Below, piece after piece: positions 1,561 to 63,252 of a stretch of 64,000 nucleotides of DNA (within the stretch, counting starts at the first letter, position 1; each line of letters opens with the position of its first letter). Origin of the DNA: Nonlabens tegetincola (GTDB lineage Bacteria; Bacteroidota; Bacteroidia; Flavobacteriales; Flavobacteriaceae); contig NZ_MQVV01000017.1 of NCBI RefSeq assembly GCF_002954355.1, positions 248,001 through 312,000 on the forward strand, in the 5' to 3' direction. Below the pieces are notes generated by a model that was not told the origin of the DNA, made no database searches, and saw only the letters and a program-made list of their open reading frames with translations. The translations under genes were made by a program, and so were the position numbers.

Positions 1561-2646
1561 TTAAATTGATGGCTTAAATTCAATTTCAAAATCATCTATA
1601 AGCTGTTGAATTCTAGTTTCAATAGCAGTAAAATAGGTACGATCTTTTAATTCTTTAATTTCTTTCCTCTCATCTACAAAACCAGATTGTTTATAAACAT
1701 CAGCGATATGAGGATGAACATAATATTCTCTACATACACTACGCGTGTTACCTAAAGCTTCGGCAGCAGCATCATAGGCTTGCAGTAGATTAGCTTCTCT
1801 ATCTTTTTCAGTATTCAAATCAGGTGATTGTAGTAAAAAAGTATAGAATTCTCTAGTCGCGCCCCATGTTCTAAAATCCTTTGCCGAGAAAATATCTCCT
1901 GCGATGGTATGCAGATAATCGTTGACGTCATGACTTTCAATAGATTGATGGTTCCCGTCATCATCGTAATACTGAAAAAGTTCCCAACCAGGAATTTCCT
2001 CACATTGCTGTATCGCTTTTACCAGCTGTGCATCATCAATTTCAACATGTTGATCAATTTGATGTTTTCCTTTAAAATCAAAGATAATTTTTGATCCTGT
2101 ATCAGTTAAGTGACGCATGCGCATTGTAGACAATCCATATGTCCCATTGCGCTTAGCATATCCTGAACTGCCTATGCGCACATAAGTTTCATCCATTATT
2201 TTTATAACTAGCGCAAGACATTTTTCTCTCGTCATTCCTGCCAATTGAAGACTGTTTACTAGTTGCTTTCTAATTTTTGGTAACGCTTTCGCGAAAGCGG
2301 ACATTTTAAAAAACTTAGTTTGATTACGAACTAAATTCCAGAGGTCATGATAGAGATATACTTTACGGTTTTTAGCATCGCGTCCAACAACTTGCAAGTG
2401 CCCATTATCGATAGCGCTTATTCGCACTTGTTGCCAAGCTGGCGGTATCACTAACGATTTAATCCTTTTAAGTTGAGCCTTATCGGTTAATCTAGATTCA
2501 TTATCAATTAGGTAAGTATATCCACGACCGTATTTTTTCCTATGAATATTTAAATGTTGGTCTGTTACATAAACCAAATCTGCCAGCTGTGCAGCATATT
2601 CAGGCTCTTCAATACAAGCACGTATATCTTCAATTGATAGGGTCAT
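1561..2646 (-). CDS. DNA topoisomerase IB (poxvirus/eukaryotic type)
   Basis: This 361-residue protein matches bacterial type IB topoisomerases, which relax supercoils through a 3'-phosphotyrosine intermediate. Visible family motifs are YVRIGSSGYAKRNGTYGLST and MRMRHL (catalytic Arg region), FRTWGATREF (catalytic region), and VCREYYVHPHI, whose second Tyr (about residue 309) is the expected nucleophile. Length is normal for the family. ATG at 2646 is a good start. Residues around MSAFAKALPK are encoded by a perfect copy of the 16-bp palindrome. It appears monocistronic, convergent with the upstream-edge gene. Confidence 0.9.
   Translation of the reverse strand: MTLSIEDIRACIEEPEYAAQLADLVYVTDQHLNIHRKKYGRGYTYLIDNESRLTDKAQLKRIKSLVIPPAWQQVRISAIDNGHLQVVGRDAKNRKVYLYHDLWNLVRNQTKFFKMSAFAKALPKIRKQLVNSLQLAGMTREKCLALVIKIMDETYVRIGSSGYAKRNGTYGLSTMRMRHLTDTGSKIIFDFKGKHQIDQHVEIDDAQLVKAIQQCEEIPGWELFQYYDDDGNHQSIESHDVNDYLHTIAGDIFSAKDFRTWGATREFYTFLLQSPDLNTEKDREANLLQAYDAAAEALGNTRSVCREYYVHPHIADVYKQSGFVDERKEIKELKDRTYFTAIETRIQQLIDDFEIEFKPSI
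2284..2299. repeat. 16-bp palindrome CGCTTTCGCGAAAGCG, copy 1
   Basis: Perfect copy inside the topoisomerase IB gene, read there as AFAKA. Confidence 0.95.
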
Positions 2647-2750
2647 ACCTATAAAAGTAGTCTAGTACATCATTGAGACTACTTAAGGATATTGTAATTC
2701 ATGTGTAAAGAATGTTAATTCAATTTACATGATCGGCAAGAAGACGAGAA

Positions 2751-3452
2751 TTACTTTTCTACAAGATCTGCTTCAAAAAGCTCAACAAAATAGGTTTTAA
2801 TTTTTTGCTTGATCTCCTCTTGATCTACAGGTCTTTTTAGCTCTGCTGCTAGAGATGTTACTGCTTTATCTTCTATTCCACAAGGAATAATATGGTCAAA
2901 ATAACCTAGATCTGTATTTACATTAAAAGCAAAACCATGCATGGTAACCCAACGACTAGCACGTACTCCTAGAGCACAAATTTTACGTGCAAATGGTGTT
3001 CCTACATCCAGCCATACGCCAGTTTCACCATTGCTACGTTCACCTTTAAGGCCGTAATCGGCCAAAATTTTAATGAAGATTTCTTCTAGTAAACGTAAAT
3101 ATTCATGAATGTCAGTAAAGAAATTTTCTAGGTCAAGAATTGGGTAACCTGTAATCTGTCCAGGACCATGATAGGTGATGTCTCCGCCACGATTAATTTT
3201 ATAAAAATCGGCATTGATTTGTTTAAGGACGGCTTCATTGGCAAGAAGATTATCCAGATCACCACTTTTACCCAGCGTGTAAACGTGATTATGTTCTACA
3301 AATAATAGGTGATTAGGTGTAGGATTCTTGGAATCTTCTTTCCTATTTTCAATTTTAATATCAAGAATTTCTTTAAAGAGTTGTTCTTGATAAACCCAGG
3401 TCTGTTTATAGTCACCGACCCCTAAATCCTGAAAGAAGACCTTTTTATTCAT
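2751..3452 (-). CDS. lipB: Octanoyltransferase LipB
   Basis: 233 residues. LipB moves octanoyl from acyl carrier protein to lipoyl domains, the first step of lipoate synthesis; a client lipoyl domain is present in the E2 at 17981-19306. The family signature RGGDITYHGPGQITGYPILD is present. The catalytic Lys lies in RKICALGVRAS and the catalytic Cys in HIIPCGIEDKA. The length is typical. The ATG at 3452 lies only 4 bp after a TACCTTTG -7 element, which suggests a leaderless or nearly leaderless mRNA (inference). Confidence 0.96.
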   Translation of the reverse strand: MNKKVFFQDLGVGDYKQTWVYQEQLFKEILDIKIENRKEDSKNPTPNHLLFVEHNHVYTLGKSGDLDNLLANEAVLKQINADFYKINRGGDITYHGPGQITGYPILDLENFFTDIHEYLRLLEEIFIKILADYGLKGERSNGETGVWLDVGTPFARKICALGVRASRWVTMHGFAFNVNTDLGYFDHIIPCGIEDKAVTSLAAELKRPVDQEEIKQKIKTYFVELFEADLVEK

Positions 3453-4003: not shown

Positions 4004-5695
4004 ATGCAACTTTCTGAACAAGAAATCGTACGCCGTGAAAAATTGGCAAAACTGCGTGAGATGGGAATAGATCCTTATCCAGCAGCGCTTTATCCCGTAG
4101 ACCATTCTACTAAACAAATTAAAGCCGATTTTAAAGAAGGTAAAAAGGTAAACATCGCTGGTAGATTAACCTCTAGACGTATACAAGGTAAGGCTAGTTT
4201 TGCCGAAGTTCAAGACTCAGAAGGTCGTATACAAGTTTACTTTAATCGTGATGAAATTTGTACCGGTGATGACAAAACGCTTTATAATGAAGTCTATAAA
4301 AAATTATTAGATATAGGTGACATTATAGGAATAGAAGGTGAGCTTTTTAAAACACAGGTAGGTGAAATGACTGTAAAAGTCACTAATTTCACATTGCTTA
4401 CGAAAACCTTGCGTCCACTACCCTTTGCAAAAACGGATGCTGATGGAAAGGTTTATGACAAATTTGATGATGCAGAACAACGTTATCGTCAACGATATGT
4501 GGATTTAGTAGTTAATCCAGATGTTAAAAATGTTTTTGTCAAAAGAACAAAACTTTTTAATGCCATGCGTGAATTTTTCAATTCGCGTGAATATTTTGAA
4601 GTAGAGACTCCAATTTTACAACCTATTCCTGGTGGTGCGGCTGCAAAGCCTTTTATCACACATCACAACTCTCTTGACATTCCTCTTTATATGCGTATTG
4701 CAAATGAGCTGTATCTTAAGAGATTGATTGTAGGAGGATTTGACGGTGTATATGAATTCAGTAAAAACTTCAGGAATGAAGGGATGGATCGCACACACAA
4801 TCCAGAATTTACAGCCATGGAAATTTATGTGGCTTACAAAGATTATAACTGGATGATGGATTTTACCGAGCAATTATTAGAACATTGCGCGGTTGCAGTA
4901 AATGGTACTACTCAAAGTACATTTGGCGATCATACCATTGAATGGAAAGCTCCATACCCTAGAGTCACCATGACTGATGCTATCAAACAGTTCACCGGTT
5001 TTGATATTACCGGTAAGAGCGAGGAAGAGTTGTACGCTTTCGCGAAAGCGGAAGGAATAGAAGTAGATAACACAATGGGTAAAGGAAAGCTCATCGACGA
5101 AATATTTGGTGAAAAATGTGAAGGAAACTTTATTCAACCTACCTTCATTACTGATTATCCTAAAGAAATGTCACCATTAACCAAGGAACACCGTGATCAT
5201 CCAGAACTTACGGAACGTTTTGAATTGATGGTTTGTGGTAAAGAAATAGCCAATGCTTATAGTGAGCTTAACGATCCTATAGATCAACGCGAGCGATTTG
5301 AAGCTCAACTGGCTCTAGCCGATCGTGGTGATGACGAGGCGATGTTTATAGACCAAGACTTTTTAAGAGCTCTAGAATACGGTATGCCACCTACGTCTGG
5401 ATTAGGAATAGGAATGGATCGACTAATTATGTTTTTAACCAACAACCCATCCATTCAAGAAGTTTTATTTTTCCCACAGATGAGACCGGAGAAAAAATTA
5501 AACGTCGACCTCAATGATGATGAAAAAATGGTATATGAACTATTAAAAAAATCAGGCAAAGTAGAGTTGAATGCGCTTAAATCTGACAGTGGATTATCTA
5601 ATAAGAAATGGGATAAAACAGTAAAAGGATTGACTGGTAAAAAGGTAGCCAAAGTTGAGAAAACAGATGATGGACTTTTTATCGATTTAGTGTAG
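4004..5695 (+). CDS. lysS: Lysyl-tRNA synthetase, class II
   Basis: 563 residues; charges tRNA-Lys. An N-terminal OB-fold anticodon-binding domain (about residues 45-145) precedes the class II core. Motif 2 is seen as FRNEGMDRTHNPEFTAMEIY and motif 3 as GLGIGMDRLIMF. After motif 3 there is a C-terminal extension of about 60 residues rich in Lys, as in other Bacteroidetes LysRS. A perfect palindrome copy encodes AFAKAEG in the insertion region between motifs 2 and 3 (about residue 346). A strong terminator follows 27 bp after the stop, so it is probably monocistronic. Confidence 0.97.
   Translation: MQLSEQEIVRREKLAKLREMGIDPYPAALYPVDHSTKQIKADFKEGKKVNIAGRLTSRRIQGKASFAEVQDSEGRIQVYFNRDEICTGDDKTLYNEVYKKLLDIGDIIGIEGELFKTQVGEMTVKVTNFTLLTKTLRPLPFAKTDADGKVYDKFDDAEQRYRQRYVDLVVNPDVKNVFVKRTKLFNAMREFFNSREYFEVETPILQPIPGGAAAKPFITHHNSLDIPLYMRIANELYLKRLIVGGFDGVYEFSKNFRNEGMDRTHNPEFTAMEIYVAYKDYNWMMDFTEQLLEHCAVAVNGTTQSTFGDHTIEWKAPYPRVTMTDAIKQFTGFDITGKSEEELYAFAKAEGIEVDNTMGKGKLIDEIFGEKCEGNFIQPTFITDYPKEMSPLTKEHRDHPELTERFELMVCGKEIANAYSELNDPIDQRERFEAQLALADRGDDEAMFIDQDFLRALEYGMPPTSGLGIGMDRLIMFLTNNPSIQEVLFFPQMRPEKKLNVDLNDDEKMVYELLKKSGKVELNALKSDSGLSNKKWDKTVKGLTGKKVAKVEKTDDGLFIDLV
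5035..5050. repeat. 16-bp palindrome, copy 2
   Basis: Perfect CGCTTTCGCGAAAGCG inside lysS, read as AFAKA. Confidence 0.95.
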
Positions 5696-9711: not shown

Positions 9712-10630
9712 AAGTAATTTCTTCTCTTCTTTTTCTTTTCAACATTTGATTGTAACCAGCGATCGCCTGTAATCCTCCTGTATGAATTGCTAAAATACGA
9801 GAATCTTTAGGAAAAACACCTTTTAAAATAAGGTCTTCTAGATGGAACATCATTTTTGAAGTGTATATGGGATCAAGTGGTACTCCGCTTTCGCGAAAGC
9901 GTGAATTCATATATTTAATTAGTTCATTATCAGACCTTGCGTATCCTCCAAATCTATCCTCAGAAAACACTTGAAAATTAGAACGAAGAGTAAGCTTGTT
10001 TATTTCCTCCTTTAAAAAACCTCCCTTTAAGGCAGAAAACACTAAAACCTTTTGGTTAGGTGCGCTGCTTTCAATAATACCTGCTGCCGTTCCACCTGTT
10101 CCGCCAGCCACGGCAATAAAATCATAATGAGATTTATCTTGGTCGGTTAATATTTCTTTGGTTCCTTGAATTGCCAGTTGGTTAGTTCCACCTTCTGGGA
10201 TAATCATAAGTTTACCGTGTTCCTTAAAAAGCTCTCGATAGTATTGATCATCCTTTTGCTTGTAAGATTCTCTAGTTACAAAGTGAAATTTCATTCCATT
10301 GTTGTGAGCCGTGAGTAAGGTATTATTACTTGCTAAGGTTTTTTTTAGATTTAAACCCAATTCCTCTCCTCTTATAATCCCGATACTAGATAAACCAGCA
10401 ATTTTTGCAGCGGCGCTTGTGGCTGCTATATGATTTGAAAAAGCTCCTCCATATGTAACTAGGGTATTGATGGATTCTTCTTGTGCATGTAATATGTTAT
10501 ATTTTAATTTCCTAAGCTTATTACCAGATACTTCAGGATGCAATAAGTCTTCTCGCTTAATATCTATTAAAACGTTATTAAGTGTTTTAAAAAACTGATT
10601 TTCAGACTGTATTACTCCATAATCTTGCAT
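9695..10630 (-). CDS. PLP-dependent ACC deaminase / D-cysteine desulfhydrase family
   Basis: 311 residues of the tryptophan synthase beta-like PLP fold. HPEVSGNKLRKLKYN holds the Schiff-base Lys, and VAGGTGGTAAGI is the phosphate-binding loop. Substrate (D-cysteine, ACC or another amino acid) is not decidable. The ATG lies 4 bp after a TACCTTTG -7 element, so this three-gene unit (with the glucosaminidase and hemL) may have a leaderless start. A palindrome copy encodes RFRES in SRFRESGVPL. Confidence 0.88.
   Translation of the reverse strand: MQDYGVIQSENQFFKTLNNVLIDIKREDLLHPEVSGNKLRKLKYNILHAQEESINTLVTYGGAFSNHIAATSAAAKIAGLSSIGIIRGEELGLNLKKTLASNNTLLTAHNNGMKFHFVTRESYKQKDDQYYRELFKEHGKLMIIPEGGTNQLAIQGTKEILTDQDKSHYDFIAVAGGTGGTAAGIIESSAPNQKVLVFSALKGGFLKEEINKLTLRSNFQVFSEDRFGGYARSDNELIKYMNSRFRESGVPLDPIYTSKMMFHLEDLILKGVFPKDSRILAIHTGGLQAIAGYNQMLKRKRREEITYEFEI
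9886..9901. repeat. 16-bp palindrome, copy 3
   Basis: Perfect copy inside the PLP deaminase gene, read as RFRES. Confidence 0.95.
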
Positions 10631-13247: not shown

Positions 13248-13263
13248 CGCTTTCGCGTAAGCG
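13248..13263. repeat. 16-bp palindrome, variant copy
   Basis: CGCTTTCGCGTAAGCG: one mismatch (T for A in the right arm). Intergenic, between hutU and the DUF4136 gene. Confidence 0.85.
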
Positions 13264-15844: not shown

Positions 15845-17923
15845 TTAATAATTCAATACCTTTTCAATCTTATTCTTTACCTTTTCAGTATTAGGAATCA
15901 TGGTTTGCTCTAGCGTACTATTTAAAGGAATCGCAGGCATATTCTCACTTCCTATAAGCATTACTGGTGCGTCTAACTCTTTAAAACATTCTTCTTGAAT
16001 ACGACCTTGCAATCCTCGCGAAAACCCATTATCACTAGGTTCTTCGGTTACAATTAAACATTTACCGCATTTCTTTACACTGGTAAATACAGTCTGATAG
16101 TCCAACGGATGTAGAGTACGCAGATCGACTACCTCTACTCTATCCTGAACTCCTAATTCTTGAGTAGCATTCATAGCCCAGTGAACACCCATTCCATAGG
16201 TAATTATCGACAAGGTTTCCTCTTCCTCTTGTTTCCAAATTTCTTGTAAAACCCATGCTTTACCAAATGGCAGGACGTAATCCTCGCTAGGCTCTATGCT
16301 AGTTGCTCCTTTTGTCCCGGGCACTTTGGACCAATACAAACCTTTGTGTTCAAAAATCACCACAGGATTAGGATCGTAATAAGCTGCTTTCATCAGTCCT
16401 TTTAAATCGGCACCATTAGAAGGATATGCTATTTTAAGACCTCGTATATTGGTTATAACACTTTCTACAGATGATGAGTGATAAGGACCACCACTACCAT
16501 AGGCACCTATAGGCACTCTTAAAATCATTGATACTGGCCATTTACCATTACTCAAGTAACATGATCTTGAAACCTCGGTAAATAATTGATTCAAACCTGG
16601 CCATATATAATCTGCAAACTGAACTTCAACTATTGGTTTCAATCCTACCGCACTCATTCCTACTGTACTACCTACTATGAAGGCTTCTTGAATAGGAGTG
16701 TTAAAAACTCGATTATCACCAAACTTTTGAGCTAGTGTAGCTGCTTCTCTAAAAACACCACCTAATCTTCCTCCTACATCTTGCCCATAAAGTAAGCATT
16801 CAGGATGCTTGCGCATCAATTCTTCAATAGCAAACAAGGCACAGTCCACCATGACTACTTTCTCTGCGTCCTTTGGCGATCGTTCTCCTTTTTCCTCAGT
16901 AATCGGTGTAGGTGCAAAATCATGCCTAAACAAATCTGCTGGTTCTGGGTCTGGTTGTTCTATTGCACTTTTGAGAGATTGCTCTACTTCTGCTTTCGCG
17001 AAAGCGTCCATCTCATCCAGTTCCAGCTCGCTAAATCCATATTTACCCATGAGCTCACGCATGCGTGGATAAGGGTCACGACTACGTGCCTCTTCAAGAT
17101 CATCTCTATAAAACTCCATGCGAACACCGCTTGTATGATGATTAAGCAAAGGCACCTTGGCATGAACTACAAATGGTCTGCGTTCTGTCCTAATAGTTTC
17201 AATAACTTTTTCAAGGGTTTTATATGATTCCTCAAAGTCTGTCCCATCAATACTTACCGACTCTAAGCCATGAAACCCTGATGCATATTGAGCAGCATTT
17301 TGTGCGCGTGTTTCTGCTTCATTAGCACTTATATCCCAGCCATTATCTTGTACTAGATATAGAATAGGTAATTGTTTAAGGGCTGCCATTTGCCAGGCTT
17401 CCGCTATTTCACCTTCGGTTACACTGGCATCACCTAGTGAACAAACGACGATAGGCATGTCAACATCGTCATCTTGCTTCAATTCTTCAAGACTTTCCTT
17501 GTACCACATTCCCATTGCTACACCTGTTGCAGGAATTGCTTGCATTCCTGTTGCGCTACTTTGATGAGGAATTTTAGGCTTATCCTCGTCATTCAATGAT
17601 GGGTGTGAGTAATAGGTACGACCACCACTGAAGGGATCATCTTTTTTAGCTAATAACTGTAGCATTAAATCATAAGGCTTCATACCTATTGCGAGCAGCA
17701 TGGCATCGTCGCGATAGTAGGGAAATGCAAAATCTTGAGGTAGCAATTGCATTCCGATTGCAGTTTGTATCACCTCATGACCACGGCTAGTGGCATGTAC
17801 ATATTTTGAAACCAGCTTAAAATTGTCTTCGTAATGCTCTGCCATTGCTTTGGCAGTAACTAGATTACGATAGGCCTTTTTAAGGTTTTCCTTAAATTGA
17901 GTATCATTTATAAAATTACTCAT
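15845..17923 (-). CDS. 2-oxoacid dehydrogenase E1, fused alpha-beta
   Basis: ATG 17923 (MSNFINDTQFKENL) is preferred; an in-frame extension to 17950 lacks family support. At 692 residues it fuses the TPP-binding alpha part (CSLGDASVTEGEIAEAWQMA and later DNGWDIS) with the beta part (LLYGQDVGGRLGGVFREA, IQEAFIVGSTVGMSAVGL, RVPIGAYGSGGPYHSSS). It decarboxylates a 2-oxoacid and passes the acyl group to lipoyl-E2. Branched-chain 2-oxoacids are the likeliest substrate given the methylcrotonyl-type carboxylase nearby (inference). A palindrome copy gives DAFAKAEVEQ at the alpha-beta linker. Confidence 0.9.
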   Translation of the reverse strand: MSNFINDTQFKENLKKAYRNLVTAKAMAEHYEDNFKLVSKYVHATSRGHEVIQTAIGMQLLPQDFAFPYYRDDAMLLAIGMKPYDLMLQLLAKKDDPFSGGRTYYSHPSLNDEDKPKIPHQSSATGMQAIPATGVAMGMWYKESLEELKQDDDVDMPIVVCSLGDASVTEGEIAEAWQMAALKQLPILYLVQDNGWDISANEAETRAQNAAQYASGFHGLESVSIDGTDFEESYKTLEKVIETIRTERRPFVVHAKVPLLNHHTSGVRMEFYRDDLEEARSRDPYPRMRELMGKYGFSELELDEMDAFAKAEVEQSLKSAIEQPDPEPADLFRHDFAPTPITEEKGERSPKDAEKVVMVDCALFAIEELMRKHPECLLYGQDVGGRLGGVFREAATLAQKFGDNRVFNTPIQEAFIVGSTVGMSAVGLKPIVEVQFADYIWPGLNQLFTEVSRSCYLSNGKWPVSMILRVPIGAYGSGGPYHSSSVESVITNIRGLKIAYPSNGADLKGLMKAAYYDPNPVVIFEHKGLYWSKVPGTKGATSIEPSEDYVLPFGKAWVLQEIWKQEEEETLSIITYGMGVHWAMNATQELGVQDRVEVVDLRTLHPLDYQTVFTSVKKCGKCLIVTEEPSDNGFSRGLQGRIQEECFKELDAPVMLIGSENMPAIPLNSTLEQTMIPNTEKVKNKIEKVLNY
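16991..17006. repeat. 16-bp palindrome, variant copy
   Basis: TGCTTTCGCGAAAGCG: only the first base differs. Inside the fused E1 gene near the alpha/beta junction, read as AFAKA. Confidence 0.9.
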
Positions 17924-17980
17924 ATTAAATGTTTTACTTGTCCACATCACATTAATGATGTAGACAGTGATTTTATAGTG

Positions 17981-19306
17981 TTATAAATCTTTAAGATCAG
18001 GAACAAGAGCCATATTATCGGCTACCTTTTTCAAAAAGCTACCGCCTAAATAACCGTCAACAACACGGTGATCAAAACTTAAACTTAACATCATCATACT
18101 GCGAATCTCAATGCGATCTTCTCCATTTTCTGTGATTACTTCGGCACGCTTTTTAATAATCCCAGTTGCCAATATTGCGACTTCTGGTTGATTGATAATG
18201 GGTGTTCCCATTAAGGAACCAAAGGTCCCTACATTACTAATTGTAAAGGTGCTTCCTTTTATATCATCACCACCTAGTTTATTATCCCTAGCTAGCCCAG
18301 CAAGTCGATTTACATCGGCAGCTAGTTCAGGTAGTGTTTTTTGATCGGCATTTTTAACTACAGGCACTATTAAATTACCGGTAGGTAACGCCGTTGCCAT
18401 CCCAACATTAATTTCCTCTTTTACGATAATGTTTTTGCCATCCAGACTACTATTAATCATTGGAAATTCTTTGATAGCGCTGGCAACAGCCTTAACGAAT
18501 AATGGCGTAAAGGTCAGTTTGTTGCCGTGTTTTTCTTGGAATTCGTTTTTCACGCTTTCGCGAAAGCGTACTACATCAGTCAAATCTGCTTCAACATAGG
18601 CAGTAACATGTGGACTAGTGTGTTTACTGTACACCATGTGATCTGCAATCATGCTGCGCATGCGGTCCATTTCTACAATACGACCAGTTCCTTTGTCTAA
18701 ATTGAGTTGGGGAATTCTATATGCTGTTGGGTCTGGTTCTGGCGATACTGATTGTGCAAATTGATAAGGCCTGCCTTCATTCAAATATTGTATTACATCA
18801 CTCTTGCGTAGACGATTATCTTTACCAGTGCCGGGAATACGAGCTAATTCCTCATACGAAATATGATGCTCTCTTGCTATACTTTCTACTAACGGGCTTA
18901 TGAACCTATCAACATTGACAAATGAGGTTTGAGAATTACTAATTGAACTGGTTACGGCTTTTTTAGGCTTGAGAGGTGTTTGTTTTGGTTTCTCAGAACT
19001 CGTTTTTTGAGGTGCTTTTTGTGCGGAATTGTCTGTTTTTTTTGTTGAACTTACTGCTCCTTCTACTGGCTCAAATCGAGCAATCACAGCGCCTATTTCA
19101 ACCACGTCTCCTGAATTGAATAAATGCTCCTGCATAATACCACTAGCAGTCGCAGGTACTTCATTATCAACTTTATCAGTACCTACTTCAACAAGAATAT
19201 CTCCTTCTTTAAAGGATTCTCCTGGTTGTACCATCCAATTGAGTACAGTTCCTTCGGTTATACTTTCACCCATTTTGGGTAAAACAAAATCTTCCATTTT
19301 TGCCAT
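17981..19306 (-). CDS. 2-oxoacid dehydrogenase E2 (dihydrolipoyl acyltransferase)
   Basis: 441 residues. Domain order: lipoyl domain (residues ~4-80, lipoyl Lys in VEVGTDKVDNEVPA), a Lys/Ser/Pro linker, a peripheral subunit-binding domain (FISPLVESIAREHHISYEEL, then IPGTGKDNRLRKSDV), and the catalytic domain with SLSFDHRVVDGYLGG holding the active His. It precedes the E1 gene by 57 bp; no E3 is present in the window. A palindrome copy encodes VRFRESVKNEF in the catalytic domain. A CTAAC-N4-GTTAG box lies 20 bp upstream. Confidence 0.93.
   Translation of the reverse strand: MAKMEDFVLPKMGESITEGTVLNWMVQPGESFKEGDILVEVGTDKVDNEVPATASGIMQEHLFNSGDVVEIGAVIARFEPVEGAVSSTKKTDNSAQKAPQKTSSEKPKQTPLKPKKAVTSSISNSQTSFVNVDRFISPLVESIAREHHISYEELARIPGTGKDNRLRKSDVIQYLNEGRPYQFAQSVSPEPDPTAYRIPQLNLDKGTGRIVEMDRMRSMIADHMVYSKHTSPHVTAYVEADLTDVVRFRESVKNEFQEKHGNKLTFTPLFVKAVASAIKEFPMINSSLDGKNIIVKEEINVGMATALPTGNLIVPVVKNADQKTLPELAADVNRLAGLARDNKLGGDDIKGSTFTISNVGTFGSLMGTPIINQPEVAILATGIIKKRAEVITENGEDRIEIRSMMMLSLSFDHRVVDGYLGGSFLKKVADNMALVPDLKDL
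18553..18568. repeat. 16-bp palindrome, copy 4
   Basis: Perfect copy inside the E2 gene, read as RFRES. Confidence 0.95.
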
Positions 19307-21544: not shown

Positions 21545-23173
21545 TTATGTCTGTATCACCCCAAGATTAAAATCCTTTTCAATAGGTGCATGATTTGCGG
21601 CTTCTATTCCCATAGAAATCCACTTGCGTGTATCGCGCGGATCTATAATAGCATCAGTCCATAATCGTGCAGCTGCATAATAAGGAGAAACCTGATCGTC
21701 ATATCTATTTTTGATTTTGTCAAACAGTGCTTTTTCATCTGCTTCACTCAGTTTCTCACCCGATTTTTCTAGCGATGCTTTTTCAATTTGCATGAGTACT
21801 TTAGCAGCGCTATTTCCAGACATTACTGCCAGTTCTGCGCTAGGCCATGCGACGATTAATCTAGGATCATAGGCTTTACCGCACATAGCATAATTACCAG
21901 CACCATAACTGTTTCCTACTACTACAGTGAATTTAGGAACCACGCTATTTGAAACTGCATTTACCATTTTGGCACCATCTTTTATGATTCCACCGTGTTC
22001 TGACTTGGAACCTACCATAAAGCCAGTCACGTCTTGTAAGAAAACTAAAGGTATTTTCTTTTGGTTACAGTTGGCAATAAAACGAGTTGCTTTATCGGCG
22101 CTATCACTATAGATAACACCACCAAATTGCATTTCACCTTTTTTGGTTTTTACAATTTTCCTTTGGTTAGCCACTATACCAACTGCCCATCCATCAATTC
22201 TAGCATATCCAGTTACGATGGTTTGGCCATAGCCAGATTTATATTCTTCAAATGTATCCGCATCGATCATACGATTGATGATATCCATCATATCATATTG
22301 ATCACTACGCTTTCGCGGAAGCGTACCAAATAACTCTTCTGGATCCAGAGAAGGTTCTACTGATTCCTTTCTATTGAAACCAGCCTTTTCAAAGTCTCCA
22401 ATTTTGTCAAAAATATTCTTGATTTTATCTAAGGCATCTTTATCGTCGCTAGCCTTATAATCAGTAACACCGCTTATTTCACAGTGAGTAGTTGCACCAC
22501 CTAAGGTTTCATTATCGATACTTTCTCCAATGGCTGCTTTAACCAAATAGCTTCCAGCTAAAAAAATACTACCTGTTTTATCAACTATAAGAGCCTCATC
22601 ACTCATTATAGGTAAGTAAGCACCACCAGCAACACAGCTACCCATAACAGCAGCAATTTGAGTGATTCCCATACTACTCATAACTGCGTTATTACGAAAG
22701 ATGCGACCAAAATGTTCCTTATCTGGGAATATTTCATCTTGCATAGGTAAGTACACTCCTGCACTATCTACCAAATAGATAATCGGTAATTTATTTTCAA
22801 TGGAAATTTCTTGGGCTCTAAGGTTCTTCTTACCCGTAATAGGAAACCAGGCTCCTGCTTTAACCGTAGCGTCATTTGCGACTACGATAACTTGTTTACC
22901 TTGAACATGACCAATTTTAACTACTACTCCACCGCTAGGACAACCACCATGTTCCTCATACATTCCTTCACCAGCAAAGGCTCCTATTTCAATAGCATTG
23001 GATGGATCATCCAATAAATAATCGATTCTTTCTCTTGCAGTAAGCTTACCTTTAGCATGGAGCTTATCAATGCGTTTTTGCCCACCGCCTAATGAAACTT
23101 GAGCAAATCTTTTTTTGAGAGTACTTAATAGTAATTTATTGTGATCTTCGTTTTTATTAAAGTTGATATCCAT
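21545..23173 (-). CDS. Acyl-CoA carboxylase carboxyltransferase subunit (methylcrotonyl-type)
   Basis: ATG 23173 (MDINFNKNEDHNKLLL) gives 542 residues. Two crotonase-like halves are visible: the first has AFAGEGMYEEHGGCPSGGVV and DEIFPDKEHFGRIF, then MGSCVAGGAYLPIMSDEALI; the second has FLQDVTGFMVGSKSEHGG and VVGNSYGAGNYAMCGKAYDP. The order and wording fit methylcrotonyl-CoA carboxylase beta better than propionyl-CoA carboxylase, pointing to leucine breakdown; a biotin carboxylase partner is not in the window. A one-mismatch palindrome copy gives LPRKRSD in the linker between halves. Confidence 0.9.
   Translation of the reverse strand: MDINFNKNEDHNKLLLSTLKKRFAQVSLGGGQKRIDKLHAKGKLTARERIDYLLDDPSNAIEIGAFAGEGMYEEHGGCPSGGVVVKIGHVQGKQVIVVANDATVKAGAWFPITGKKNLRAQEISIENKLPIIYLVDSAGVYLPMQDEIFPDKEHFGRIFRNNAVMSSMGITQIAAVMGSCVAGGAYLPIMSDEALIVDKTGSIFLAGSYLVKAAIGESIDNETLGGATTHCEISGVTDYKASDDKDALDKIKNIFDKIGDFEKAGFNRKESVEPSLDPEELFGTLPRKRSDQYDMMDIINRMIDADTFEEYKSGYGQTIVTGYARIDGWAVGIVANQRKIVKTKKGEMQFGGVIYSDSADKATRFIANCNQKKIPLVFLQDVTGFMVGSKSEHGGIIKDGAKMVNAVSNSVVPKFTVVVGNSYGAGNYAMCGKAYDPRLIVAWPSAELAVMSGNSAAKVLMQIEKASLEKSGEKLSEADEKALFDKIKNRYDDQVSPYYAAARLWTDAIIDPRDTRKWISMGIEAANHAPIEKDFNLGVIQT
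22308..22323. repeat. 16-bp palindrome, variant copy
   Basis: CGCTTTCGCGGAAGCG: one mismatch. Inside the carboxyltransferase gene, the only copy here in the third reading frame, coding LPRKR. Confidence 0.88.
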
Positions 23174-23463
23174 CGATTGCGTAGTTTTCCCAAAAATAGC
23201 AAATCTCAACCTGAAACGCAGAATATAACTGGTTTAAACAAGAATTAACATGAATTCAAAAGCCCTTATTAATCAATGAATTAAAACGTAAGCCTCAAGT
23301 CTAAAAACTTAAAATTATGTTAATGAGAGTTCAACACAATTGATTTAAATCACTTCTCGTAACATTATCCAAATTATTATTACGTGAAAATCCATGCAAC
23401 AATGCCATACATTGCACGCATTCTGTGTTAATCAATAATAAGAATTAAATCTACCTGAGAAGT

Positions 23464-40152: not shown

Positions 40153-40210
40153 CTTTGAAAATTTGCTTAAAAATAGCAAACTATCGATAAACAAGATATT
40201 TTGAATGTAG

Positions 40211-45010: not shown

Positions 45011-47548
45011 TTACAACAGTCCAAATTGTTCCAAATGATGTGTTACATGTTTACGCTCCAGCAAGCTCCATTCGTATTTAGAAAGCGGTCCAAAAACAGC
45101 ATTCTTAGTAGTAGCTTTTGGATTACGCTTAAAGTAATCTATGTACTCATTACGAGCCTCAAAAAGTTTTTCAATAGCGGTTGCCAGGTCTTCATGTTGT
45201 AGCTCCTCTAGGCTTCCATCTTGTTTCATTAATGGCATCTTGAAATCACGCGGCATTTTCTCATAATTCCATAAGGTTGCTGCCACTTTTTCTAGATATT
45301 TTTCTGGTGTTGCTACTTCAAAATCTTGAATCTCACCACTAGCAATTCTGTAACCATGCTCTAGATGCTCGACCATGTGCTGCATGGTCATGCTGCCCCA
45401 TAATGGTTTTGTTTCTGGGTTCGCTTTCGCGAAAGCGGAACGCATAAAACGTTCATTGATTTCTGGAAATGTTGTTTGCTTTTTCTCTACCATCGTAAGA
45501 ATAGTCGCAACCGCAACGAGAGCTTGTGCTTCTTCGTCCGTTTTACCGTTTTCATAATCAACTGGCTCTGCGTCAAAAACCTCAACATACCATTTTACGA
45601 TACCACTAGGATGCTCACGACCGCTTACATCGCGCTCGCGTTTTTCTTTACAAGTTAATCGCACATAAATCGTATCGTTGTGGTATAACGGTCTTAAAAA
45701 ACGAATATCTTCAAGTCCATAATTGGCACTTACTGGGCCTTTATTAGGATAAACGAACAAACCAGCAGCAGCACTAATGATAAAGTAACCATGCGCTGTG
45801 CGCTTTTTAAAAATGCTACCATCTAAACTGGTGATATCTGTATGGGCATAAAAATGGTCCCAAGTAAGATTAGCAAAGTTTTGAATATCCGTATCAGTAA
45901 GAGTACGCTTGTGCGTTTGCAGACTCATACCAGGTTTGATATCTTCATAATGATAGGCAAAAGGATGCTTTTCGGCTTCTTTGTACGCACCATTAGGTTG
46001 GTAAATTCCTGTGACTTCTGTGAGTGTCGTCGGGCTACCTTGAACCGCACAACGTTGCATGTAGTGTTTGATACCGCGCAGTCCGCCCATTTCCTCGCCG
46101 CCGCCGGCACGTCCTGGTCCACCATGCACTAATAACGGTAGCGGTGATCCGTGTCCGGTGGATTGTTTTGCGCTTTCGGCATTTAAACATAGTATTCTTC
46201 CATGATGCGATGCAGCTTCTACAGTGTACGCTTTCGCGAAAGCGTCATCACCAGTAACCACACTGCTCACCAGAGAACCTTTACCCATTTGAGCCAACTC
46301 GATTGCCTCTTCAATCCCATTGTAAGGCATGATGGTACTCACAGGACCAAAAGCCTCAATCTCGTGAACCGCAATGTTTTTGAATGGGTTGTCTTCTCTC
46401 AACAAAATTGGAGACATGAACGAGCCTTTTTGGGCATCGGCGCCATGAACCTCAACATTATCTAAATCACCATAAACGATGTTTGCTGTCTCGGTTAGTT
46501 TTTTAATTTGGCTGATAGTTGTATCACGCTGATCATTATTAATTAACGCACCCATGCGTGTTTCCTTTAGTTTAGGATCACCTATAACAGTACGACTTAA
46601 TTGCTTTCCTAAAGCGATTTGAACATCTTCAACCAGATTTTCTGGAACGATAATGCGACGTATAGCAGTACATTTTTGGCCGCATTTTACGGTCATCTCC
46701 TTGCGCACTTCCTTAATGAACAGGTCAAATTCTGCTGTTCCAGGAACCGCATCTTCTCCCAAAACACAAGCATTTAAACTATCAGCTTCCATTGTAAATG
46801 GAACACTCTCTTCTAGAAGCTGGCTGTGATTTTTAAGTTTACGACCTGTGGCAGCACTACCTGTAAAGGTCACAACATCTTGAGATTGTACAGTGTCTAA
46901 AATACTTGTAGTAAGCCCAGATAACAATTGCAGTGATCCTTCTGGTAAAATACCGCTATTGATAATCTCGCGCACTACAGCCTCTGTTAGGAAAGCTGTT
47001 TGAGGTGCTGGTAATACCACTGCTGGCATTCCTGCCATCCAGTTTACGGCGCATTTTTCTAGCATTCCCCAAACTGGAAAATTAAACGCATTGATATGAA
47101 CTGCTACTCCTCTTTTAGGTACTAAAAGGTGGTGTGCCATAAAGCGTCCACCACGCGATAAATCAATAGGCTCACCTTCTACAGCATAACTTTGGTCTGG
47201 AAAGAGTTTACGCAAACTGGCATTTGCAAATAGATTACCAAATCCTCCTTCTATATCTATCCAGCTATCTACTCTCGTAGCACCAGTGCGGTAACTAATC
47301 TCGTAAAACTGTTCCTTGCGCTTGGTAAGATAAAGTGCTAGTTTCTTTATCATATTACCTCGCTGTTGAAAGGTCATATCTCTAAGGATTTTACCATTAT
47401 CTCTACCATATTGCAAGGCACTAGCGATATCTAACCCTTCTGTACTTGTTAAGCCTATTACGTCACCGGTAATGGCGTCGTACATATTACGAGCATTTCT
47501 ATCATCTCCTGTTAACCATTGTCCATTTATATAAGAAGGTAAAATCAT
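45011..47548 (-). CDS. paaZ: PaaZ ring-opening enzyme fused to a DUF1569/DinB-like domain
   Basis: 845 residues against ~680 in E. coli PaaZ. The aldehyde dehydrogenase part (residues ~1-510) has the catalytic KCGQKCTAIRRIIVPENLVE (second Cys) and VHEIEAFGPVS; the MaoC hydratase part (~525-675) has TWDHFYAHTDITSL. Together they open oxepin-CoA. The last ~150 residues (MTMQHMVEHLEHGYRIASGE, then SLLERKHVTHHLEQFGLL) form a DUF1569/DinB-like four-helix domain. A palindrome encodes SAFAKANPET at this junction, and another lies in the ALDH part (DDAFAKAYT). Confidence 0.93.
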   Translation of the reverse strand: MILPSYINGQWLTGDDRNARNMYDAITGDVIGLTSTEGLDIASALQYGRDNGKILRDMTFQQRGNMIKKLALYLTKRKEQFYEISYRTGATRVDSWIDIEGGFGNLFANASLRKLFPDQSYAVEGEPIDLSRGGRFMAHHLLVPKRGVAVHINAFNFPVWGMLEKCAVNWMAGMPAVVLPAPQTAFLTEAVVREIINSGILPEGSLQLLSGLTTSILDTVQSQDVVTFTGSAATGRKLKNHSQLLEESVPFTMEADSLNACVLGEDAVPGTAEFDLFIKEVRKEMTVKCGQKCTAIRRIIVPENLVEDVQIALGKQLSRTVIGDPKLKETRMGALINNDQRDTTISQIKKLTETANIVYGDLDNVEVHGADAQKGSFMSPILLREDNPFKNIAVHEIEAFGPVSTIMPYNGIEEAIELAQMGKGSLVSSVVTGDDAFAKAYTVEAASHHGRILCLNAESAKQSTGHGSPLPLLVHGGPGRAGGGEEMGGLRGIKHYMQRCAVQGSPTTLTEVTGIYQPNGAYKEAEKHPFAYHYEDIKPGMSLQTHKRTLTDTDIQNFANLTWDHFYAHTDITSLDGSIFKKRTAHGYFIISAAAGLFVYPNKGPVSANYGLEDIRFLRPLYHNDTIYVRLTCKEKRERDVSGREHPSGIVKWYVEVFDAEPVDYENGKTDEEAQALVAVATILTMVEKKQTTFPEINERFMRSAFAKANPETKPLWGSMTMQHMVEHLEHGYRIASGEIQDFEVATPEKYLEKVAATLWNYEKMPRDFKMPLMKQDGSLEELQHEDLATAIEKLFEARNEYIDYFKRNPKATTKNAVFGPLSKYEWSLLERKHVTHHLEQFGLL
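45422..45437. repeat. 16-bp palindrome, copy 10
   Basis: Perfect copy in paaZ, at the MaoC/DUF1569 fusion joint, read as AFAKA. Confidence 0.95.
46229..46244. repeat. 16-bp palindrome, copy 11
   Basis: Perfect copy in the aldehyde dehydrogenase part of paaZ, read as AFAKA. Confidence 0.95.
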
Positions 47549-50681: not shown

Positions 50682-50697
50682 CGCTTTCGCGAAAGCG
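50682..50697. repeat. 16-bp palindrome, copy 12
   Basis: Perfect copy in the divergent paaJ-paaH spacer, 15 bp upstream of the paaJ ATG. Confidence 0.95.
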
Positions 50698-50787: not shown

Positions 50788-51966
50788 ATGAAAATTAAGA
50801 CAGTAGGAATTATAGGCGCTGGAACAATGGGTCGTGGTATTGCACAAGTTGCAGCTACCGCTGGATGCACGGTTGCACTTTTTGATACGAATCAAGATGC
50901 TCTGGATAATGCCCGTGCCTCTCATGAAAAAATCATGAATCGATTGGTAGAAAAAGGACGTATCGATGAAGATGAGAAAAACCGAATTCTAAGTAATATC
51001 ACGTATGTGGATGCTGTCTCCGCTTTCGCGAAAGCAGACCTCATCATAGAAGCCATTATAGAGAATATTGACATTAAGAAAAAGGTTTTTCAAACTATTG
51101 AAAAAACTGTTTCTGAATCATGTATCATCGCATCAAATACCAGTAGTTTAAGTATCGCGAGTATTGCTGCATCACTAGACAAACCTGATCGTTGTGTAGG
51201 TATTCATTTTTTCAATCCTGCTCCATTAATGAAATTGGTAGAAGTTATACCAGCGGTACAAACTAGTGACTTAACTTTAAACACTAGTGTTGCTACTATA
51301 AAAGAATGGGGTAAGGTTGTGGCAGTAGCAAAAGACACACCAGGTTTTATCGTTAACCGTGTAGCACGTCCTTTTTACGGAGAAGCTATAAGAATTTTTG
51401 AAGAAGGCATTGCCGATATTCCTACCATAGATTACGCTTTAAAGAGTTTAGGTTTTAAAATGGGACCTTTTGAGCTTACAGATTTCATAGGCCATGATGT
51501 AAATTATGTAGTGACTGAGACTGTATTTAAGGCTTTCTATTACGACCCTAGATACAAACCTAACTTTTCTCAAAAAAGGTTAGTTGAAGCTGGATGGTTA
51601 GGCCGAAAAAGTGGTAGAGGTTTTTATGATTATAAAAATGATGAAGCCGCTAATTTCTATGGAAAACAACAACCAAACAAAGAGACAAAACTTATCGAGA
51701 ATATTCAAGATAGAATCCTTGTCATGCTTATTAATGAAGCTGCCGATGCTTTGTTTTTAAATATAGCAAACGCTACTGATATTGATACCGCCATGACTAA
51801 AGGCGTTAATTACCCTAAAGGATTACTCTCATGGGCTAATGAAAAAGGAATTTCATGGTGTGTAAATCAATTAGACTCGTTATACGATCTGTATCGTGAG
51901 GACCGTTACCGCTGTTCACCTCTTTTAAGAAAATTGAATGAGCACGGTAAGCAATTTGATATTTAA
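50788..51966 (+). CDS. paaH: 3-hydroxyadipyl-CoA dehydrogenase
   Basis: 392 residues. The NAD-binding Rossmann motif is GIIGAGTMGRGIAQVAATAG; IASNTSSLSIASIA and GIHFFNPAPLMKLVEVIPA follow, then two 3-hydroxyacyl-CoA dehydrogenase C-terminal domains (GFIVNRVARPFYGEAI and a second after LINEAADALF). It oxidises 3-hydroxyadipyl-CoA. The TAA overlaps the next ATG by one base. A variant palindrome codes VSAFAKADLI. Confidence 0.92.
   Translation: MKIKTVGIIGAGTMGRGIAQVAATAGCTVALFDTNQDALDNARASHEKIMNRLVEKGRIDEDEKNRILSNITYVDAVSAFAKADLIIEAIIENIDIKKKVFQTIEKTVSESCIIASNTSSLSIASIAASLDKPDRCVGIHFFNPAPLMKLVEVIPAVQTSDLTLNTSVATIKEWGKVVAVAKDTPGFIVNRVARPFYGEAIRIFEEGIADIPTIDYALKSLGFKMGPFELTDFIGHDVNYVVTETVFKAFYYDPRYKPNFSQKRLVEAGWLGRKSGRGFYDYKNDEAANFYGKQQPNKETKLIENIQDRILVMLINEAADALFLNIANATDIDTAMTKGVNYPKGLLSWANEKGISWCVNQLDSLYDLYREDRYRCSPLLRKLNEHGKQFDI
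51021..51036. repeat. 16-bp palindrome, variant copy
   Basis: CGCTTTCGCGAAAGCA: only the last base differs. Inside paaH, read as AFAKA. Confidence 0.9.
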
Positions 51967-59611: not shown

Positions 59612-60391
59612 TTAATTTCCTTTGAACTTTGGACTGCGTTTTTCCATAAAAGCTGCAACACCTTCTTTGTAATCCTCGGTTTGTGCGCTTTCAATTTGAA
59701 GTTTACTTTCTAGGGCTAATTGTTGTTCAACGTTGTTTGAATAACTTGCGTTGAATGCTTTCTTTGTATTAGCCAGGGCAATGGTAGGTAGGTTTGCTAG
59801 TTTTTCTGTTTTAGCTTTCGCAAAAGCTAAAAACTCATCATCTTTTATCGCTTTATAAATCATACCCATTTGTTCAGCCTCGTTTGCGGTAATTTTATCG
59901 GCTAGCATAGCGATAGCACTCGCCTTACCAAAACCAATTAATCGTGGTAAGAACCAGGTCCCAGCACTATCTGGAATTAACCCTATTTTACTAAATGCTT
60001 GAATAAACGCAGCACTTTCTGTCGCAATTACCACATCACAACACAATGCGATGTTTGCTCCAGCACCAGCAGCAACACCATTTACTGCAGCTACAACAGG
60101 TTTTTCTAAATCACGTATCTTAATCACGATAGGATTATAATGGTCGTCTAGTATAGCCTTAAAACCAGGATTGAGTTCTGGATCAGTAATCTCTTGAATG
60201 TCTTGACCAGCACAAAAAGCTTTACCTTCTCCAACAATCATTACAGCACGCACATCATCTTCTTTACAACGATCCAAAGCATCTTGCATCGCATGGGCCA
60301 TTTCTTTATTAAAAGAATTAAAAACCTTGGGTCTATTAAGAGTTATAGTGGCGATATTGTTTTCAATTTTAAGCAAAATACTGTTTGACAT
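59612..60391 (-). CDS. paaG: 1,2-epoxyphenylacetyl-CoA isomerase
   Basis: 259 residues, crotonase fold. GEGKAFCAGQDIQEI and AAVNGVAAGAGANIALCCDV form the oxyanion hole; FSKIGLIPDSAGTWFLPRLI has the Asp that defines PaaG-type isomerases (1,2-epoxide to oxepin-CoA) instead of the Glu of hydratases. A remodelled palindrome copy encodes LAFAKAKTE. Probably monocistronic here. Confidence 0.88.
   Translation of the reverse strand: MSNSILLKIENNIATITLNRPKVFNSFNKEMAHAMQDALDRCKEDDVRAVMIVGEGKAFCAGQDIQEITDPELNPGFKAILDDHYNPIVIKIRDLEKPVVAAVNGVAAGAGANIALCCDVVIATESAAFIQAFSKIGLIPDSAGTWFLPRLIGFGKASAIAMLADKITANEAEQMGMIYKAIKDDEFLAFAKAKTEKLANLPTIALANTKKAFNASYSNNVEQQLALESKLQIESAQTEDYKEGVAAFMEKRSPKFKGN
59811..59830. 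repeat. Remodelled palindrome copy in paaG
   Basis: Arms TTAGCTTT / AAAGCTAA around CGCA. The outer CG pairs of the consensus are replaced, yet symmetry is kept, and the peptide is still AFAKA. Confidence 0.65.
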
Positions 60392-60472: not shown

Positions 60473-60488
60473 CGCTTTCGCGAAAGCG
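60473..60488. repeat. 16-bp palindrome, copy 13
   Basis: Perfect copy in the divergent paaG-T9SS cargo spacer, 81 bp before ATG 60569. Confidence 0.95.
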
Positions 60489-62707: not shown

Positions 62708-62715
62708 ACCTCTTC

Positions 62716-63252
62716 TTACTTCAAACACTTGAAATAGTCAAAGGGCTCTAGACAATCATCACATTGAAACATTGCTTTACAAGCTGTTGAACCAAATTGA
62801 CTGACTAGTTTTGTATTAGTAGAACCACAGTTGGTACATTTGACCAACTTTTTATTATTAAGTAAAACATCCTTATCGGCAGTTGGTTCTAGAGGAGCAG
62901 CTATACCATATTCTTCCATAGCTTTACGACCACGTTCTGTAATCCAATCGGTTGTCCATGGTGGCGACATGATAAGTTGTATGGTGGTTGTGTAGCCCGC
63001 TTTCGCGAAAGCGCGATCTAAATCATCTCCTATAACATCCATTGCCGGACATCCACTATATGTAGGTGTAAGTTGAATGGTTACATGATCTTCATCCAAT
63101 TGCACACTTCTGATTACACCTAAATCAATAACACTCAAGACTGGAATCTCTGGATCAGAAACAGACTCTAAAATATCTAAAACATCTTTGGGTAAATCCA
63201 AAAATTGTTCAGAATTTAATTCATAAGAATTTGTTTTAGAATCACTACTCAT
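62716..63252 (-). CDS. paaD: 1,2-phenylacetyl-CoA epoxidase subunit PaaD
   Basis: 178 residues. N-terminal MIP18/DUF59 domain (ILESVSDPEIPVLSVIDLGV, TPTYSGCPAMDVIGDDL), middle SPPWTTDWITERGRKAMEEY, and a C-terminal zinc ribbon (CTNCGSTNTKLVS, then CDDCLEPFDYFKCLK). PaaD is thought to help Fe-S or metal assembly of the epoxidase. A perfect palindrome encodes RAFAKAGYTT. It is separated from paaC by 244 bp, wider than usual. Confidence 0.93.
   Translation of the reverse strand: MSSDSKTNSYELNSEQFLDLPKDVLDILESVSDPEIPVLSVIDLGVIRSVQLDEDHVTIQLTPTYSGCPAMDVIGDDLDRAFAKAGYTTTIQLIMSPPWTTDWITERGRKAMEEYGIAAPLEPTADKDVLLNNKKLVKCTNCGSTNTKLVSQFGSTACKAMFQCDDCLEPFDYFKCLK
62998..63013. repeat. 16-bp palindrome, copy 14
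   Basis: Perfect copy inside paaD, read as AFAKA. Confidence 0.95.

What the first reader, a model, noticed from the sequence alone, without database searches (positions are those of the whole stretch)
2284..63013. High-density 16-bp palindrome CGCTTTCGCGAAAGCG
Fourteen exact copies (2284, 5035, 9886, 18553, 25664, 30477, 35770, 39981, 41634, 45422, 46229, 50682, 60473, 62998), four one-mismatch copies (13248, 16991, 22308, 51021) and one remodelled copy (59811) occur in 64 kb of AT-rich DNA, where chance predicts essentially none. Spacing averages about 3.5 kb and is fairly even, with no clustering. Preferred flanks look like TAC before and GGAA after. This is not a mobile IS or a terminator. 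Candidates are a DNA uptake sequence, an architectural protein site (ParB and Noc sites are also 16-bp palindromes, with different bases), or a methylation target with TCGCGA at its core.
Basis: partly seen in the sequence, partly recalled or inferred. Interest (0 to 1): 0.9.

Follow-up and report, generated by a model that had tools for sequence, protein, structure and literature searches.

The report
Genome-wide iterated palindrome with strand-asymmetric flanks
A group of marine bacteria carries hundreds of copies of one 16-letter palindrome, evenly spaced and kept intact over evolution inside a roughly 80-letter DNA site, which points to an unknown machine that reads these sites throughout the chromosome.

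Summary
The window has 14 exact and 4 one-mismatch copies of CGCTTTCGCGAAAGCG (expected 0.01). The 3.03-Mb genome has 464; the 22 other genomes searched of its genus have 180-737; the only other high-copy genomes found belong to two genera of one clade with it. Copies are evenly spaced: no exact pair under 500 bp where about 20 are expected. They show no replication or gene-orientation bias and are 3.7-fold denser between genes. Between two species 95% identical, 45 of 48 sites are intact, about 21 expected.

A feature not in the finding: each palindrome sits between ~32-nt flanks of opposite strand bias, G-poor and A/C-rich 3' of each strand, C-poor and T/G-rich 5' (p=4e-184). Substitutions point to selection, not mutation. 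The two halves vary independently: a symmetric ~80-bp site, not a hairpin.

Best reading: palindromic self-DNA recognition site kept by uptake or recombination drive (0.42). Main rival: chromosome-binding architectural protein (0.33). No shared methyltransferase (two families searched) or clade-specific ParB paralogue was found; the reader protein is unknown.

The parts
2284..2299 (.). exact palindrome, inside type IB topoisomerase-like ORF (1561-2646, -), read AFAKA
5035..5050 (.). exact palindrome, inside lysine--tRNA ligase ORF (4004-5695, +), read AFAKA
9886..9901 (.). exact palindrome, inside PALP-family ORF (9695-10630, -), read RFRES
13248..13263 (.). one-mismatch palindrome, intergenic
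16991..17006 (.). one-mismatch palindrome (outermost base), inside a two-part dehydrogenase E1-type ORF (15845-17950, -), read AFAKA
18553..18568 (.). exact palindrome, inside E2 acyltransferase-type ORF (17981-19306, -), read RFRES
22308..22323 (.). one-mismatch palindrome, inside carboxyltransferase-type ORF (21545-23209, -), read LPRKR
25664..25679 (.). exact palindrome, codons 12-17 of DUF6588 ORF (25629-26615, +), read AFAKA
30477..30492 (.). exact palindrome near the C-terminus of threonine--tRNA ligase (30432-32378, -), read AFAKA; the same codons carry it in G015 and G234 (exact) and in G250 and G006 (one mismatch)
35770..35785 (.). exact palindrome, inside RimO ORF (35321-36625, -), read RFRES
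39981..39996 (.). exact palindrome, inside amidase-type ORF (38554-40194, -), read RFRES
41634..41649 (.). exact palindrome, inside PaaY-like ORF (41266-41862, -), read RFRES
45422..45437 (.). exact palindrome, inside PaaZ ORF (45011-47548, -), read AFAKA
46229..46244 (.). exact palindrome, second copy inside PaaZ ORF, read AFAKA
50682..50697 (.). exact palindrome, intergenic
51021..51036 (.). one-mismatch palindrome (outermost base), inside 3-hydroxyacyl-CoA dehydrogenase ORF (50788-51966, +), read AFAKA
59813..59828 (.). three-mismatch relative AGCTTTCGCAAAAGCT inside enoyl-CoA hydratase ORF (59612-60391, -)
60473..60488 (.). exact palindrome, intergenic
62998..63013 (.). exact palindrome, inside PaaD-type ORF (62716-63252, -), read AFAKA
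18521..18600 (.). example of the whole ~80-bp element around one site: 32 nt of flank, palindrome, 32 nt of flank. The flank bias is statistical and single sites vary; here the first 30 nt on the 3' side hold 2 G and 8 C
   Evidence: flank extent; sequence; extent applied to this site by coordinates

Best explanation
The palindrome is the core of a symmetric, roughly 80-bp double-stranded recognition site that marks self DNA. Shown: exact core, two strand-asymmetric flanks, even spacing, retention in place, distribution in one clade. Inferred: an unidentified clade-specific protein, acting as a dimer or twofold complex, binds the site when DNA is taken up or recombined, and fragments carrying the site replace homologous DNA lacking it. 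Such drive would restore mutated sites, leave no advantage for closely spaced copies because one site per fragment is enough, and let sites arise where the protein sequence tolerates them. It would work like a DNA uptake sequence of Neisseria or Haemophilus, but it is palindromic and its import machinery must differ; it is not filed as a member of that family.
For: 180-737 exact copies in 22 of 22 other genomes of the genus, plus 630 and 153 in two other genera that group with it on a thrS tree, support 100/94, midpoint-rooted drawing. The 12-mer core occurs 445-917 times in nine of nine clade genomes searched while the outermost base drifts, like a dialect. Even spacing: CV 0.51 vs 0.99 simulated on the 84 listed sites of one contig; 0 exact pairs under 500 bp vs 19.6 expected; a relatively even distribution is called an expected consequence of uptake drive in PMC7811141 (passages seen). 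Retention: 45 of 48 sites intact at 95.1% identity, 21.5 expected, p=6e-13. Mismatch spectrum 239/66/18/16/29 for 0-4 mismatches vs 0/0/0.1/2.1/32 for shuffled palindromes. 3.7-fold denser outside ORFs, no preference among types of gene gap. Counts per 20-kb stretch even along four chromosomes. Two of three sparse stretches looked at hold accessory-type genes. Isolated phages P12024S and P12024L have none. Own-DNA preference in transformation is reported for Riemerella columbina, a Flavobacteriaceae species (PMC7965970, passages seen).
Against: The secretin family, which forms the outer-membrane channel of known uptake-sequence systems (recalled), was found in 1 of 24 genomes (G016, a high-copy one). 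ComEC is in 24 of 24, outgroups included, so it does not discriminate. Known uptake sequences are described as not palindromic and not as evenly spaced as compaction would need (PMC1939737, passages seen). 11 of 30 viral contigs with the motif have 2-6 copies, one a tailed phage with 6 in 37 kb, which uptake drive does not predict. A published uptake sequence shows a more gradual spectrum, 438 exact and 947 one-mismatch (PMC1939737). One search for the genus name with 'uptake sequence' found no paper.
Confidence: 0.42

Rival explanations
1. The site is bound inside the cell by a clade-specific architectural protein that organises, bridges or insulates the chromosome every few kilobases, and selection acts on the cell.
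For: Symmetric site with independent half-sites, as for a dimer; even spacing with an exclusion zone; even counts along chromosomes; strong retention in place; phages carrying copies.
Against: Hundreds of redundant sites would each need their own selective value to be kept in place (inference); restricted to one clade while nearly all other genera sampled have none or few; no ori or ter pattern such as Noc, SlmA or MatP sites have (recalled), at the resolution of 10-20 stretches per genome; no clade-specific ParB paralogue. A 32-nt composition bias on each side is unusual for a site-specific architectural protein (inference).
Confidence: 0.33
2. A two-way Chi-like site: a helicase-nuclease meeting the palindrome from either side switches to recombination, leaving a 3' tail whose T/G-rich 5' flank suits RecA loading.
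For: Each strand's 5' flank is T/G-rich and C-poor over about 32 nt, the kind of strand RecA is said to prefer (recalled); core spacing of about 4-7 kb is close to E. coli Chi, 1008 in 4.64 Mb (PMC1939737); the isolated phages without copies carry ERF- and YqaJ-type recombination genes.
Against: Known Chi sites are 5-8 nt, non-palindromic and strand-biased (recalled); a 16-bp core plus flanks is far more than a Chi reader is known to read (recalled).
Confidence: 0.12
3. A highly iterated palindrome of the cyanobacterial HIP1 kind, kept through a cognate DNA methyltransferase.
For: Palindromic, iterated genome-wide, found in coding DNA.
Against: Density 48-224 exact copies per Mb (counts, contig lengths) against 1000-2000 per Mb for HIPs (PMC4390886, section 3.1 read). 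G008 and G010 have no hit to PF00145 or PF01555; PF02086 and type I families were not searched. HIPs are about 5-8 bp, sometimes extended.
Confidence: 0.05
4. The site works as a hairpin or cruciform, or the flanks are a mutational scar of single-stranded DNA.
For: Perfect palindrome; the flank bias resembles deamination asymmetry; in two of four comparison sets flank identity at 6-32 nt is lower (0.62-0.68) than at 60-120 nt (0.71-0.79), though sites are often intergenic.
Against: Outer bases of the two halves vary independently. In the 95% pair flank identity is not lowered (0.954-0.971 vs 0.949-0.959 farther out) and A-G changes on the 3' side are fewer (20 vs 52 C-T; 515 vs 515 farther out), opposite to a mutational cause.
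Confidence: 0.03

Closest known systems
DNA uptake sequences (Neisseria DUS, Haemophilus USS)
   Same: Hundreds of copies, exact core, even spacing, in coding and intergenic DNA, lineage dialects, flanking bases matter
   Different: Palindromic, 12-16 bp core, ~32-nt strand-asymmetric flanks on both sides, core spacing about 4-7 kb against about 1 kb for USS, secretin found in 1 of 24 genomes, competence of the genus unknown
HIP1 and other highly iterated palindromes of cyanobacteria
   Same: Palindromic, iterated, often in coding DNA, lineage-specific
   Different: Longer core, about 4 to 40 times rarer per Mb, extended flanks, no shared methyltransferase found in the two families searched
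parS / Noc-binding sites
   Same: 16-bp palindromes with TTTC...GAAA halves (recalled)
   Different: Half-sites 2 bp closer, hundreds of copies, no ori or ter pattern seen, single ParB gene as in outgroups
Chi sites
   Same: Similar density, possible recombination role, T/G-rich strand
   Different: Palindromic, long, no strand bias possible

Membership tests
DNA uptake sequence | Genome-wide over-representation of one exact oligomer | tested here: met
   464 copies in the own genome, 180-737 in 22 of 22 congeners
DNA uptake sequence | More even than random spacing | tested here: met
DNA uptake sequence | Preferential uptake of DNA carrying it | not testable with these tools
   needs a transformation assay
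DNA uptake sequence | Competence machinery with outer-membrane secretin (as in known systems, recalled) | tested here: not met
   PF00263 in 1 of 24 genomes; ComEC PF03772 in 24 of 24; pilins not searched
DNA uptake sequence | Depleted from recently acquired DNA | tested here: inconclusive
   two sparse stretches hold accessory-type genes and two isolated phages have no copy, but 11 of 30 viral contigs have 2-6 copies
HIP1-type palindrome | Cognate methyltransferase in every genome with the palindrome | tested here: inconclusive
   PF00145 and PF01555 both without hit in G008 and G010; other families not searched
HIP1-type palindrome | About 1000-2000 copies per Mb | tested here: not met
   48-224 exact per Mb; range for HIPs
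ParB/Noc site | ParB/Noc-type paralogue in the carriers, or clustering near ori / gap near ter | tested here: not met
   single ParB_N gene in 11 of 13 high-copy genomes and 9 of 11 others; even counts along four chromosomes
Chi site | Recombination stimulation by a helicase-nuclease | not testable with these tools
   needs an assay

The most novel reading that the evidence does not exclude
The first self-DNA recognition sequence of the phylum Bacteroidota: a palindromic, two-directional site of about 80 bp whose specificity is shared between a fixed core and a strand-composition code in the flanks, read by a machine with no known relative, and shared by some phages. (That none is known is from my own knowledge and the searches; PMC7965970 lists over-represented k-mers in Riemerella without a test, passages seen.)
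Probability: 0.35. Interest if true: 0.9.

Novelty: new variant of a known kind. Interest (0 to 1): 0.75.

Why it matters
It is a large, clean signal of an unknown DNA-recognising system in a group of marine bacteria. More than 20 species carry it, and neighbouring genera without it serve as natural negative controls, so the search for the reader protein is directly testable. The flank code, kept as composition rather than as sequence, has no counterpart that I know of in uptake sequences, HIP1 or Chi. If it is an uptake signal, it raises the question of how gene exchange works in Flavobacteriaceae without a recognisable secretin.

Tried and rejected
RNA families: no gathering-score match in the window; around one site only matches below the families' cut-offs. 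tRNA or tmRNA: none. Hairpin or cruciform: disfavoured by independence of the two halves. Terminator or promoter: no preference by type of intergenic gap. Insertion element: the thrS site shows in-frame substitution without indel. Mutational origin of flanks: disfavoured by the substitution spectrum of the 95% pair, although flank identity is lower in two more distant sets. Helical periodicity in flanks: not significant (p 0.12-0.66). Half-sites alone or other iterated motifs of similar strength: none in the masked sequences. Other iterated palindromes of 10-14 bp in 79 loci of other genera: nothing comparable, but each locus is only 3-22 kb; one case with three copies, L090, is a local repeat. 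Genus name: nearest named genome is Flavobacteria bacterium BBFL7, whose taxonomy entry gives no genus; 'Nonlabens' is recalled. Literature: the 12-mer core as text is in 0 papers of the library; no paper with Nonlabens and 'uptake sequence'; the 7 papers with Nonlabens and 'palindrom' were seen as a listing only; other searches. Papers: passages of PMC7965970, PMC1939737, PMC4390886 (and its section 3.1) and PMC7811141; abstract and outline of PMC7371117.

The script stopped at a formatting error after printing the flank tests; the rest was rerun. One search was run on re-checking: it showed that the flank bias at viral sites, which I had called weak, is significant.
Full report
Observation. 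The 16-mer CGCTTTCGCGAAAGCG occurs 14 times exactly and 4 times with one mismatch in the window, against 0.01 expected in shuffles. The window is part of a 3,028,293-bp genome with 464 exact copies and 600 with up to one mismatch; the reversed control gives 0.

Distribution. Of 58 other genomes, all 22 of the same genus have 180-737 exact copies; of the 36 others one has 4 and 35 have none. Of 397 genomes of the family (four of the genus, the own included), 48 have at least one copy. Of the 393 from other genera 44 have any, and only two have more than 13: G250 (630) and G234 (153). A maximum-likelihood tree of threonine--tRNA ligase with 64 rows puts the 23 high-copy rows, three genera, on one side of a branch with support 100/94; it is midpoint-rooted, so 'clade' assumes the root lies elsewhere. 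Two genus members are not in it, one without a match (G013) and one with a broken gene (G001). One origin is the simplest reading. The 12-mer core CTTTCGCGAAAG occurs 445-917 times in the nine clade genomes searched and 0-21 times in twelve outgroups. G022 and G234 have fewer 16-mers because their outer bases are looser (for G234).

Low-copy genomes. I took 15 stretches from 10 of the 42 low-copy genomes. By my reading of the translations (no family search), 29 of their 31 copies lie in metal-efflux-like genes (RND pump, outer-membrane efflux protein, P-type ATPase, adaptor) or a Fur-like regulator beside them; the two in L130 do not. Many of the stretches are related to each other, and copies recur at fixed distances, such as 2,446 bp in three genomes. 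Their flanks carry the bias described below (11 distinct sites, G 97 vs C 161, p=8e-5). The simplest reading is that islands shaped in a clade host moved out.

Spacing. The 84 listed sites of contig 10 have mean gap 5.6 kb and CV 0.51, against 0.99 in simulation; 2 of 83 gaps are under 2 kb against 25 expected (the listing is capped). In sampled stretches of the genus no exact pair is closer than 500 bp (19.6 expected) and 4 are at 500-1000 bp (18.8 expected); beyond about 1.5 kb counts scatter around expectation. In G234, 0 of 99 listed gaps of the core are under 1.3 kb (16.4 expected). Counts per 20-kb stretch are even along G020, G002, G019 and G234 (variance/mean 0.16-0.80), with 10-20 stretches per genome, so no ori or ter pattern shows at that resolution. 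Of three sparse stretches looked at, one holds sugar-utilisation genes, one a GHKL-type ATPase beside a C5 methyltransferase (three of five proteins given had no Pfam hit), and one a 5,911-aa repetitive ORF.

Where sites lie. In 1.204 Mb of the genus (near relatives G004 and G008 both included) 152 exact sites lie wholly in ORFs of at least 100 aa and 87 do not, where 13.5% of bases lie outside ORFs; the density is 3.7 times higher outside. Among the 81 assigned to a type of gap the types do not differ (p=0.55). In ORFs the AFAKA frame dominates, 103 of 152. Sites are frequent in the first tenth of ORFs, 40 of 152, partly because ORFs were taken from the first possible start. At the thrS C-terminus the palindrome stands in place of ordinary codons without indel: G000, G015 and G234 exact, G250 and G006 one mismatch, other species other residues.

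Retention. G008 and G004 are 95.1% identical over 188 kb; 48 of 49 sites could be aligned, and 45 are intact where 21.5 are expected without constraint (p=6e-13). Among more distant species, 45 of 61 site-by-species comparisons are identical and 55 of 61 within one mismatch while the flanks are 67-70% identical; these comparisons are not independent. Two other sets gave 10 of 12 and 14 of 18 identical. One G020 site is replaced by a longer sequence in G008 and G004. The mismatch spectrum is close to all-or-none: 239, 66, 18, 16, 29 for 0 to 4 mismatches against 0, 0, 0.13, 2.1, 32 for shuffled palindromes.

The flanks. Averaged over both strands, the 32 nt on the 3' side of the palindrome are poor in G and rich in A and C; by symmetry the 5' side is poor in C and rich in T and G. 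Totals over positions 1-32: genus, 269 sites, G 1849 vs C 4045, p=3.9e-184; G250, 50 sites, G 334 vs C 771, p=2.5e-40; G234, 14 sites, G 183 vs C 241, p=0.0056; window, 14 sites, p=7.5e-4. Positions 61-120 show nothing (p 0.19-1). These tests treat bases as independent. The bias fades at about position 33. It is present on both sides of the coding strand in coding sites and in intergenic sites, so it acts at DNA level, and it is strong at codon third positions. The skews of the two sides are uncorrelated (r=0.05). In the 95% pair flank identity is no lower than farther out, but A-G changes on the 3' side are scarce: 20 against 52 C-T, where farther out both are 515 (p=2e-4). A mutational cause would not reduce A-to-G changes; selection or biased transmission against G would. 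Against this, in two more distant sets flank identity at 6-32 nt is lower than at 60-120 nt (0.62-0.68 vs 0.71-0.79), which may reflect intergenic location. In intergenic sites the first four flank bases prefer AAAT. No helical periodicity is significant.

Symmetry. At the outermost base, pair counts of the two halves are close to the product of their frequencies in the six genome groups, so base pairing between halves is not what is kept. This speaks for a double-stranded site read by a symmetric protein.

Phages. 41 stretches from 30 viral contigs (my count) hold the 16-mer; single copies in GC-rich contigs may be chance, and several contigs are related to each other. 11 contigs have 2-6 copies. 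The contig with 6 copies in 37 kb encodes terminase, portal, head, sheath and baseplate proteins. At 22 distinct viral sites the flank bias is weaker than in the hosts but significant (G 208 vs C 298, p=7e-5). The two isolated phages P12024S and P12024L have no copy within three mismatches in 35.7 kb each. Copies in phages are the main fact that the uptake reading does not explain.

Candidate genes. Secretin PF00263: 1 of 24 genomes, G016. ComEC PF03772: 24 of 24, outgroups included. ParB_N PF02195: 24 of 24, one gene in most, a second in 2 of 13 high-copy genomes and 2 of 11 others. Methyltransferases PF00145 and PF01555: 12 and 13 of 21 genomes, neither in G008, G010 or the outgroup G120.

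Judgement. Shown: a clade-specific, evenly spaced, individually retained, symmetric recognition site with a flank code. Inferred: the mechanism. Uptake or recombination drive explains retention of each single site among hundreds, the exclusion zone, the exact core and the dialects; PMC7811141 calls an even distribution an expected consequence of drive (passage), while PMC1939737 finds uptake sequences less even than compaction would need (passage). The missing secretin and the phage copies weigh against it. An architectural protein is the main alternative.

Noticed in passing
L125-L129, L131-L138, L144 (stretches of G145, G122, G352, G131, G033, G328, G155, G188, G259, G380): Related islands with metal-efflux-like genes in several Flavobacteriaceae genera carry the palindrome, some copies at fixed distances, with biased flanks: apparently a trace of a stay in a clade host.
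   Followed up: partly
L024, L041, L044 (viral contig 3300040781_000495): A tailed phage with 6 exact copies in 37 kb, close to host density.
   Followed up: partly
L126:7036-8334 and L135:9041-10339: In one outer-membrane efflux-type gene the palindrome of the signal-peptide region is replaced by a longer in-frame stretch of other sequence.
   Followed up: partly
G008 and G004 counterpart of the G020 site at 1961 of L187: The site is replaced by a longer sequence in both G008 and G004; an 11-mer of it is not repeated elsewhere in those stretches.
   Followed up: partly
L232 (G019:2130001-2150000): AT-richer stretch with a GHKL-type ATPase beside a C5 methyltransferase and a single palindrome near its edge; possibly a defence island.
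   Followed up: partly
L195:1410-19145 (G020): An open frame of 5,911 aa rich in Asp repeats, with repeated two- and three-mismatch relatives of the palindrome.
   Followed up: no
window 41266-63252: Genes like those of phenylacetate degradation (PaaY, PaaZ, PaaH, PaaD).
   Followed up: no
G001:C20:133709-135649: thrS is split into four matches in this genome, perhaps assembly errors.
   Followed up: no
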